Below, piece after piece: positions 45,517 through 48,755 of a stretch of DNA of 64,000 nt (positions are counted from its first letter, which is position 1; every line of letters starts with the position of its first letter). The notes under the pieces were generated by a model. That model saw nothing but the letters and a program-made list of their open reading frames with translations. It searched no databases and had not been told where the DNA came from. Where the stretch lies: contig JAJSLM010000001.1 in assembly GCA_026127925.1 (NCBI GenBank), forward strand, positions 186,001 through 250,000, written 5' to 3'. Position numbers and translations under genes: made by a program. This stretch comes from Thermoplasmatales archaeon. GTDB lineage: Archaea; Thermoplasmatota; Thermoplasmata; Thermoplasmatales; Thermoplasmataceae.

Positions 45517-45891
45517 ATGGCAAGCTATAAACCTGATACTAAGGACATGAATATTAAAGGTAGTACGACAATTTGCCCCATAGTCGAGGCAATAAAGGAA
45601 ATAGGCTCTGAATGGAAACTAATAGTCATAAGATATCTTGATGATGGGCCAAGTGGATTTAATGATCTATTGAGAACAGCAAACGGAATAAATTCAAAAA
45701 CACTTTCGTCCACTCTAAAGAGTCTCGAGGAAAGCGGCATTATAGTACGTAATGTCCAGAGCACGCGGCCATTTCGCGTAAGATATGAGCTCACATCAAA
45801 AGGCAAGGCTCTGAACAAGGCATTAATGGATCTGAAAGAATGGGGACAGGAATGGGTTGTTTCAATTCCTGATAATCAAGTTGCCACTTAG
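45517..45891 (+). CDS. HxlR-family transcriptional regulator
   Basis: 124 residues. CPIVEAIKEIGSEWKLIVIRYL followed by GPSGFNDLLRTANGINSKTLSSTLKSLEESGII and RVRYELTSKGKAL is the HxlR winged-helix pattern, with the N-terminal cysteine (Cys20) that acts as redox sensor in some relatives. Its stop overlaps the stop of the severed pirin tail on the other strand (45888-45890). Probably regulates the divergent yceI and possibly pirin. Confidence 0.92.
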   Translation: MASYKPDTKDMNIKGSTTICPIVEAIKEIGSEWKLIVIRYLDDGPSGFNDLLRTANGINSKTLSSTLKSLEESGIIVRNVQSTRPFRVRYELTSKGKALNKALMDLKEWGQEWVVSIPDNQVAT

Positions 45892-45953
45892 AGAAAATTT
45901 GACTCTTTTACCCTAACAAATGTGTTATTTCTTAAATCAATGAGGGTTTTAAC
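45888..45953 (-). pseudogene. Severed 3' end of the pirin gene
   Basis: On the minus strand, GTT at 45953-45951 opens a frame of 21 codons to TAA at 45888: VKTLIDLRNNTFVRVKESNF plus L. This is what the end of a pirin should look like (relatives read MNTxEEIxxAxxDFRN). Joined to codon 289 of the pirin at 48755-47889 it restores one continuous frame of 310 residues with no base added or lost. Without the element between them these were one gene. Confidence 0.88.
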
Positions 45954-45980
45954 TGCTAATGGGAATATTTATATATAATT

Positions 45981-46586
45981 ATGTATTATTGTGTAATATA
46001 TACGAGTAAAATATACACAATCAGGGAGGCATGCGACATACTGCAGGTAGATGCAACCACATTGAGAAGATGGGATCGTGAGGGGAAAATACACTGCATA
46101 AGACTGTCAAATAACTTCAGAAGGGTTCCTGAGGAGGAAATAAACAGGATATTAGGGGTAAAGAGCAATAGAATAGATGCAATATACGCAAGGGTATCCT
46201 CTAACGATCAGAAGAATGATCTATATAACCAGATCAATAGATTGAAATCATTACACATGGATGCACAGGTATTCAGCGATATAAAATCTGGATTGAAATT
46301 CAACAGAAAGGGATTCACTGAACTGTTGAATATGATTGAGGAGGATAAAATAAATAACATATATGTTACTCATAAGGACAGGCTGGCAAGGTTTGGCTTT
46401 GATCTGATAGAGAATATATGCAAAATCCATGGTACAAGAGTAATAGAGGTGGATGGGGAAGAAATACCATCGGCAAATGAGGAACTAACTAGGGATTTAA
46501 TATCCATAATAACATCATTCTCAGCAAGGTTGTACGGGTTAAGGTCTCATAAGATGAAGAATATTTTGGATGCGGTAAAAGGATGA
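45981..46586 (+). CDS. tnpA: IS607-family serine recombinase TnpA
   Basis: 201 residues. N-terminal MerR-like helix-turn-helix (YTIREACDILQVDATTLRRW, residues ~12-31), then the small serine-recombinase domain with catalytic Ser in AIYARVSSNDQ (Ser73), and VTHKDRLARFGFDLIE with the conserved arginines. This N-terminal placement of the DNA-binding domain defines IS607 transposases. A TATA-like TATTTATATATAA lies just upstream inside the element. About a dozen extra residues precede the usual start, so the true start may differ. Overlaps tnpB by 4 bp. Confidence 0.94.
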   Translation: MYYCVIYTSKIYTIREACDILQVDATTLRRWDREGKIHCIRLSNNFRRVPEEEINRILGVKSNRIDAIYARVSSNDQKNDLYNQINRLKSLHMDAQVFSDIKSGLKFNRKGFTELLNMIEEDKINNIYVTHKDRLARFGFDLIENICKIHGTRVIEVDGEEIPSANEELTRDLISIITSFSARLYGLRSHKMKNILDAVKG

Positions 46587-47833
46587 GCCATAAGTGGAAA
46601 TCTATCGGCGAGAAAAGAACCATATCATTCAGTTATGTTCCAGGGAGTAACATACTGAAATATCTAACTGACATGCGGGATTTAACAAATAAGGCCATAC
46701 TCAATGCATATTCAATAGCAAAATCAGATAATAATCAACTGCCTTCACCGATCACCTTGAGAAGGTCGTTGAAAAGATATTATGACAGTAACATGATTTA
46801 TGCAAAGCACCATATCAATCCTGTATGCAGAACTGCCATAGCAATACTTAGGTCATACAAGAAAAACAATAATGGGAAATTGAAGGTCGTTAAAGCAGAA
46901 AGACTATCGATGAGGATAGATTCTGAGCTGGCAAGGATAGAGGATAATAAAGTAAGGATAACAATAAAGCCTCATGAGTATGAATACATCGATATTGTTG
47001 ATAAAAATAAGAAATTCAGTGAATACTCCAATCATCCCGTATCAGAGGTATTATTAACGGAAAGTAGAGTATACATCACGTTCATAACAGGAAGCGATAA
47101 TAAGCCTGTGATTGGAGATAATATAATAGGATTTGATTTAAACTTTAAATCAGTTGATTACACAGTAATAAAAAATAACAGGATAGTTGAGGTGAACTCC
47201 ATAGATACATCCGACATAGCAAAAACTCAAAGGGACTACACGAGGAAGAGAACAAAGATACAGAAGCATATTAAGAATCCCGCCAAACGGATCAGGAAAC
47301 TGAAAGAGGCAACACACAGACAGCAGAATGTCGTAAGGGACAAACTCCAGAAACTAACGACCGGAATAGTTGATGATAACAGAGATAAGACCTTCGTGTT
47401 CGAGAATTTGACAAATATAAAAAAGGAGGGGCAAAAAAAGAAATATAAGGATAATAAAAAAGACAATAAAGCCAGCAAGGGACGGAATAGTACTCCGAAG
47501 TCTAAGAGGTTCAGAACAGATATTGGCAGATGGCCATACAGACTGTTCCAAAAATTTGTAGATTATAAATCCAATAACAGAACACTGTACATAAATCCAG
47601 AGGGGACTTCTTCTGAATGTCCTGTATGTGGTGGAAAATTAAAGCACCCAATCTGGAAAAAATCTGAATGCAATAACTGTGGTGTAACCTTCAGCAGGGA
47701 TAGATTATCCTCATTATCTATCTCTGCCAAGGGATTACGCCTATGCGGTACCCCGTTTACCGTGAGTGGCAGTGCCTCCTGGTATTCTATGAAGAATAGT
47801 TACCTGTACCATCCAGATCAGGGCAACTATTGA
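46583..47833 (+). CDS. tnpB: TnpB, RNA-guided RuvC nuclease of IS607 element
   Basis: 416 residues. RuvC residues Asp185 (GFDLNF), Glu274 (FENL) and Asp373 (FSRDR) are present, with zinc-finger cysteines 346, 349, 363 and 366 (CPVCGG, CNNCG). The basic bridging region and TSSECPVCG are typical. TnpB relatives cut DNA matching a guide carried by an RNA that reads off the element's right end, helping the element persist. The last ~40 residues after Asp373 are less typical (usual ADRDxxAAxN is SRDRLSSLSIS). The 3' end overlaps the disrupted pirin frame. Confidence 0.92.
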   Translation: MSHKWKSIGEKRTISFSYVPGSNILKYLTDMRDLTNKAILNAYSIAKSDNNQLPSPITLRRSLKRYYDSNMIYAKHHINPVCRTAIAILRSYKKNNNGKLKVVKAERLSMRIDSELARIEDNKVRITIKPHEYEYIDIVDKNKKFSEYSNHPVSEVLLTESRVYITFITGSDNKPVIGDNIIGFDLNFKSVDYTVIKNNRIVEVNSIDTSDIAKTQRDYTRKRTKIQKHIKNPAKRIRKLKEATHRQQNVVRDKLQKLTTGIVDDNRDKTFVFENLTNIKKEGQKKKYKDNKKDNKASKGRNSTPKSKRFRTDIGRWPYRLFQKFVDYKSNNRTLYINPEGTSSECPVCGGKLKHPIWKKSECNNCGVTFSRDRLSSLSISAKGLRLCGTPFTVSGSASWYSMKNSYLYHPDQGNY

Positions 47834-48755
47834 GAATTCCAGCGACTGCAAGAAAGAGATGCATAACAGTGCATAATATTTCAGGAACGGCTTCATCTAT
47901 CTGTTCCCTAGAGTTCATCACTATTGGCCCATACCAATAAATTGGTTCGTTTAATGGTTTTCCGGCCAAAAAGATAAACCTTGCTTTGCCACCGTTTGTT
48001 GACAGGACAATTCTTTCACCGTTCCTTGAGAATACGCCGAGATTTCCTGCTGCAAGTGTCTCCCTTGCCTTCGATTCGCTTGTTACACTGCCAGCGATTA
48101 CGTATATCATGGAGTTTAACCCATTCTCTACACTGAGTTCGAAAGTAGATTCATCTTCCATAAAAACATCAAAATATGAGGTCTTCAGCGGGTTTTGTTC
48201 AAGCAAACCATCTATCCCAAAGTAGTTCCCAGCAACAATCTTGACGATTGCTCCGTTACCGTTATCAATTTTAGGAAACTCATTTCCCTTGAAATCTCTA
48301 TACGTAGGCATAGACATCTTTTTGGAAGCCGGCATATTTAGCCACAGCTGCATACCTACAACGCTGTTTGGCATACCAGTGGTTTTAAGCAATTCTTGCG
48401 GATCCTTTTCATTCAATGGTTTCGGCATTTCTTGATGAAATATACCGCTACCTGCTGTCATCCACTGTATATCCGACGGATATATCGTTCCCTTATGTCC
48501 CTCACTGTCCTCATGTTCAACTTTTCCCTCAAGCAAATAGGTCACAGTTTCTATTCCTCGATGGGGATGCCATGGGAAGCCCGCGATGTAGTCTTCGATT
48601 CTATTGGATCCAAAATGGTCAAGTAGAAGAAATGGATCCGTTATCTTGGCGGATTCGTGTCCTCCAAAAATTCTCTTTAGCTTTACACCTGCGCCATCCT
48701 GTGTATTCGTTCCGTGAAACACATAGTCTATATTTTTTATCATTTTGACCACCAT
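47787..48755 (-). pseudogene. Pirin-family protein, 3' end replaced by IS607 sequence
   Basis: Pirins are iron-containing bicupin proteins (quercetinase or redox roles). Cupin motifs GFPWHPHRGIETVTYLLEG (near 58-76), HEDSEGHKG, GSGIFHQEMP and GNLGVFSRNGERI are intact. Residues 1-289 are native; the remaining 33 residues (from VPEILCTVM to the stop at 47787) are read from the end of the IS607 element, and the true last 21 codons lie at 45888-45953. Because the lost part is only the final helix, the hybrid may still fold. ATG 48743 is an alternative start; GGTGG before it could be its ribosome site. Confidence 0.9.

What the first reader, a model, noticed from the sequence alone, without database searches (positions are those of the whole stretch)
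45888..48755. IS607 element splits a pirin gene; its last 21 codons are stranded beyond the element and the frame closes perfectly
Seen directly: the minus-strand pirin frame is native to codon 289 (ending ...QIDEA), then reads into the element. On the far side, 45953-45888 encodes VKTLIDLRNNTFVRVKESNF + L + stop, exactly the expected pirin ending. Deleting 45954-47888 yields a 310-residue pirin with no frame change. AAC at both joints limits the boundary uncertainty to 3 bases. This gives precise ends for an archaeal IS607 element, whose ends are otherwise hard to find because it has no inverted repeats, and shows a recent insertion.
Basis: seen in the sequence. Interest (0 to 1): 0.72.

Follow-up and report, generated by a model that had tools for sequence, protein, structure and literature searches.

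The report
Jumping gene interrupting an archaeal pirin
A common type of mobile DNA (an IS607 element) has jumped into the pirin gene of a Thermoplasmata archaeon and cut off its last 18 amino acids; a related species with the intact gene shows that the element begins nine bases earlier than first thought, at the GG typical of this family.

Summary
The core observation holds. An IS607-family element (tnpA 45981-46586, tnpB 46583-47833) splits a minus-strand pirin gene, and the gene's 3' end lies stranded beyond it. The congener G001 carries the uninterrupted gene in the same gene order.

The stated ends are wrong. Deleting 45954-47888 leaves three extra codons (VKT) that none of 29 related pirins has. 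Deleting 45945-47888 (1,944 bp) gives a 307-codon pirin that aligns with the congener's 307 codons without a gap. The slip went unseen because 9 bp is a multiple of three. The stranded piece is 18 codons plus stop (45888-45944), not 21. The AAC at both joints is inside the element. The real shared core is GG (45945-45946, 47889-47890), the known IS607 crossover dinucleotide.

Copies in related genomes confirm both ends: left ends always follow GG (25/25), usually GGG (23/25). Four other insertions in coding sequence have empty sites in relatives with no gap at the joint. The right end looks like a TnpB guide-RNA end; GGG resembles published IS607 TnpB target motifs.

This is an ordinary member of a known family. 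'Recent' means only after the split from G001 (pirin DNA about 82% identical).

The parts
45945..47888 (+). IS607-family element, 1,944 bp (equivalently 45946-47889 or 45947-47890, within the GG core)
   Evidence: Leaving it out gives a 307-codon pirin that aligns without gaps to the congener's intact gene; both ends recur in independent insertions
45943..45946 (+). AGGG at the left joint: A and first G are target DNA, 45945-45946 is the GG core
   Evidence: Congener alignment; GG before 25/25 left ends, GGG before 23/25
47889..47890 (+). GG core at the right joint
   Evidence: Right ends of independent copies end ...GAACGG and then diverge
45981..46586 (+). tnpA, IS607-family serine transposase (201 aa)
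   Evidence: NCBIfam NF033518 above cut-off; Pfam HTH plus Resolvase; solved relatives ISC1926, ISC1904
46583..47833 (+). tnpB, divergent TnpB-type nuclease (416 aa; C-terminus shortened by a 1-nt insertion relative to other copies)
   Evidence: Pfam Cas12f1-like TNB above cut-off; guided_TnpB below cut-off; C-termini compared
47745..47890 (+). predicted right-end (guide) RNA scaffold
   Evidence: Conserved in 18 copies although read by tnpB in different frames; consensus fold with limited covariation
47891..47910 (+). predicted guide segment, antisense to the pirin codons just before the break
   Evidence: Position by analogy with published IS607 TnpB right-end RNAs (PMC10711439); sequence read directly
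47889..48755 (-). pirin codons 1-289 (5' part)
   Evidence: Pfam Pirin and Pirin_C; congener homologue
47787..47888 (-). element-encoded tail of the chimeric pirin ORF (33 residues plus stop)
   Evidence: ORF 47787-48755; absent from relatives
45888..45944 (-). stranded pirin 3' end: LIDLRNNTFVRVKESNFL and stop
   Evidence: Attached to pirin in the congener and in other family members

Best explanation
A 1,944-bp IS607-family element (TnpA serine recombinase plus TnpB nuclease) inserted at an AGGG site within a pirin gene. Inferred from the family: TnpA makes a circular form and recombines its GG with the target GG, so the insertion is conservative and excision would restore the gene exactly. 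Shown here: the join at GG gives a pirin collinear with the congener's, codon for codon, and pirin loses its last 18 codons and instead runs 33 codons into the element. Inferred: the right end is a TnpB guide-RNA scaffold whose guide is the adjoining pirin sequence; an excised or empty allele would read GGG next to that guide sequence and could be cut by TnpB, whereas the occupied right junction reads CGG and may be spared.
For: Uninterrupted, syntenic pirin in the congener. Both coding sequences are 924 nt once 45945-47888 is left out. VKT is absent from 29 pirins, and the corrected join scores better on Pirin_C (98.2 against 93.0 bits, profile columns to 102 against 97). Both ends recur in independent insertions. 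Four other insertions in coding sequence have empty sites in relatives with no gap at the joint when joined in the same way. IS607 transposase model above cut-off. GG core and (G)GG target published for IS607 (PMC6188088). Published IS607 TnpB target motifs: GAGGG or AGGAG (PMC11061315), GGG (PMC10711439).
Against: The congener reads GTG, not GGG, at the target, so the exact pre-insertion bases are inferred. TnpB falls below the NCBIfam guided_TnpB cut-off. The fold of the window right end alone is not clearly better than shuffles (z -1.25), and only 3 pairs show change on both sides. 2 of 25 left ends lack the third G. No expression, excision or cleavage data.
Confidence: 0.95

Rival explanations
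1. One reading: the element is 45954-47888 and the native pirin has 310 residues, including VKT.
For: The frame also closes with this join, because the 9-nt difference is a multiple of three.
Against: VKT is missing from all 29 related pirins; the congener alignment needs a 9-nt gap exactly there; GGTTTTAAC is the conserved left end in copies with unrelated flanks; there would be no GG core at the left joint.
Confidence: 0.02
2. The crossover used the first two bases of GGG (45944-45945), so that the empty site had only GG and the element carries an extra G.
For: GG alone is the published core, and 2 of 25 left ends follow GG without a third G.
Against: The restored pirin would be one base short of the congener's and out of frame; five other joins inside ORFs stay open across the joint with GGG, and relatives' empty alleles align to the GGG joins without a gap at the joint.
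Confidence: 0.02
3. The junctions are an assembly artefact.
For: Draft genome of 17 contigs; reads were not available.
Against: Both joints lie inside a 441-kb contig; the joints match the ends of independent insertions in other genomes and the IS607 GG rule.
Confidence: 0.01

Closest known systems
ISC1926 and ISC1904 (archaeal IS607 elements of Sulfolobus)
   Same: TnpA with the same catalytic domain (PDB 6dgc and 3ilx found by sequence); IS607 family, whose members have no terminal inverted repeats and make no target duplication (PMC6188088)
   Different: Different host lineage and end sequences; the end sequences of ISC1904/ISC1926 were not compared here
IS607 of Helicobacter pylori
   Same: GG at both termini, insertion at (G)GG, no target duplication (PMC6188088)
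   Different: Bacterial; here the left flank is usually (A)GGG
ISXfa1 and ISFba1 IS607 TnpBs
   Same: TnpB downstream of an IS607 TnpA with a guide RNA running over the right end; GGG (ISXfa1) or AGGAG/GAGGG (other IS607 TnpBs) as target motif, similar to the flank here (PMC10711439, PMC11061315)
   Different: TnpB here is divergent, below the NCBIfam guided_TnpB cut-off, and its activity is untested; no Rfam family matched the right end

Membership tests
IS607 family | Serine transposase with N-terminal MerR-like HTH and C-terminal resolvase catalytic domain | tested here: met
   NF033518 189.4 bits against cut-off 110; Pfam domain order; PDB relatives
IS607 family | GG at both element-host joints, no target duplication beyond the core | tested here: met
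   45945-45946 and 47889-47890; 924-nt CDS restored without indel; other copies
IS607 family | Accessory tnpB downstream of tnpA | tested here: met
   46583-47833, overlapping the end of tnpA by 4 bp
IS607 family | Transposition through a circular intermediate | not testable with these tools
   Needs a circle-junction PCR or reads
TnpB RNA-guided nucleases | Match to curated TnpB models | tested here: inconclusive
   Pfam TNB domain above cut-off; NF040570 72.6 bits against cut-off 100, TIGR01766 31.5 against 32
TnpB RNA-guided nucleases | Right-end guide RNA | tested here: inconclusive
   Strong conservation across frames and a consensus fold, but the single-sequence fold is not significant and there are no RNA data
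TnpB RNA-guided nucleases | RNA-guided cleavage next to a target motif | not testable with these tools
   Only the conservation of (A)GGG before the left end
Pirin | Pirin and Pirin_C domains | tested here: met
   Both above cut-off; the interrupted ORF stops at column 94 of 103 of Pirin_C, the corrected join reaches 102

The most novel reading that the evidence does not exclude
In this archaeal group, 317-395-bp derivatives (G081, G093, G092) keep only the left end and the guide-RNA right end. They may act as guide-only passengers, mobilised by TnpA and protected in trans by TnpB of full copies, with GGG (empty site) against CGG (occupied joint) telling the two states apart.
Probability: 0.25. 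Interest if true: 0.45.

Novelty: new member of a known kind. Interest (0 to 1): 0.25.

Why it matters
It gives base-exact ends, a GG core and an (A)GGG target motif for an IS607 group in Thermoplasmata, supported by five empty sites (pirin and four others), and so predicts the target motif and guide of its TnpB. It also shows that a frame that closes perfectly does not fix a boundary: an error of a multiple of three goes unnoticed without a homologue.

Tried and rejected
Three paper look-ups failed for too short search terms and were repeated with longer ones. Rfam found only two tRNAs in the window. No relative of tnpB in viral contigs; only distant ones, under 60% identity, on plasmids. Weak matches to the right-end pattern in G000:C8, G000:C11, G001:C66 and G001:C6 do not resemble the right end upstream of the pattern and were set aside. 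A further joined site, G081c, aligns with gaps near the joint and was not used. Dating the insertion from the stranded tail was rejected as too weak: 10 differences in 57 nt, about the rate of the body.

Full report
Observation. On the minus strand a pirin ORF runs from 48755 through codon 289 (47889) and then reads 33 codons into other DNA. On the plus strand, inside the interruption, lie tnpA (45981-46586) and tnpB (46583-47833). TnpA exceeds the NCBIfam IS607 cut-off, has the HTH-then-resolvase order and is related to the solved ISC1926 and ISC1904 transposases. TnpB has the Cas12f1-like TNB domain but is below the guided_TnpB cut-off. The genome holds one full copy and one other, diverged tnpA.

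Empty site. Among 61 genomes searched, the congener G001 has a pirin matched over all 310 query residues at 87% identity, uninterrupted, with the same ETF and HxlR neighbours. In 29 related pirins the segment equivalent to IDEA is followed directly by the segment equivalent to LIDLRN; the three residues VKT appear in none. Leaving out 45945-47888 instead of 45954-47888 gives a coding sequence of 924 nt, identical in length to the congener's, with no indel, and a better Pirin_C match (98.2 against 93.0 bits).

Ends. The corrected joint places GG on both sides (45945-45946, 47889-47890). Nearly all right ends from related genomes read TTTCARGAACGG and then diverge. In 25 left ends with a readable flank (the window's included) the element always follows GG, and in 23 GGG, most often preceded by A. 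Five other insertions inside ORFs (G079a, G079b, G081d, G075a, G077a), joined at GGG, stay open across nearly the whole 400-bp join; one G fewer or more shortens the frame. Four of these joins align to uninterrupted alleles in other species with no gap at the joint, and 11 of the 16 alleles compared carry GGG themselves. So the first G belongs to the target and the element brings only its own GG. This fits the published IS607 behaviour: GG at both termini, (G)GG target, no duplication (PMC6188088), exchange over a GG overlap through a circle (PMC4058570).

Mechanism. Shown: a conservative insertion at GG that truncates pirin. Inferred from the family: exchange through a circle, and precise excision. 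The last ~145 bases of the element are strongly conserved although tnpB reads them in two different frames in different copies and stops early in the window copy, which points to constraint on the RNA rather than on the protein. A consensus fold keeps 98% of cells paired, with three pairs showing change on both sides; the window sequence alone is not clearly more stable than shuffles (z -1.25). IS607 TnpBs are reported to use AGGAG or GAGGG (PMC11061315) or GGG (PMC10711439) as target motif; the left flank here reads TGAGGG. The restored empty site would read GGGCTTCATC, the occupied right junction CGGCTTCATC; in the own genome the occupied junction is the only site within three mismatches, and the congener's site has two mismatches, one of them in the motif. 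TnpB cutting of the empty allele and sparing of the occupied one is therefore plausible but untested.

Age. The insertion postdates the split from G001 (aligned DNA about 82% identical). The stranded tail differs from the congener at 10 of 57 sites, about the rate of the body (158 of 867), 6 of them at third positions. This is compatible with a recent event but is a weak test. No same-species comparison was available.

Verdict. Ends of archaeal IS607 elements were known before (PMC4058570, PMC6188088).

Noticed in passing
G000:C2:104252-104289 (L002) and G001:C97:4262-4309 (L075): Solitary right-end remnants of 38 and 48 bp that stop exactly at GG, with no left end found nearby: probably traces of older insertions in the genus.
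   Followed up: partly
L088/L127 (G081), L089/L128 (G093), L081 (G092): Deletion derivatives of 317-395 bp that keep the left end and the right (guide-RNA) end but no room for the genes; the G081 one sits in an ORF that is uninterrupted in G079 and G080.
   Followed up: partly
window 47818-47826: One extra base in tnpB (GATCAGGG) relative to 17 related right ends, which shortens the C-terminus; the other copies read this stretch in two alternative frames.
   Followed up: partly
G000:C6:58522-59070 (L036): A second, diverged tnpA (36% identity) elsewhere in the genome, without a close relative of this tnpB.
   Followed up: no
window 45888-45891: The original pirin stop overlaps by 4 bp the 3' end of the convergent HxlR-type regulator gene (45517-45891 +).
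   Followed up: no
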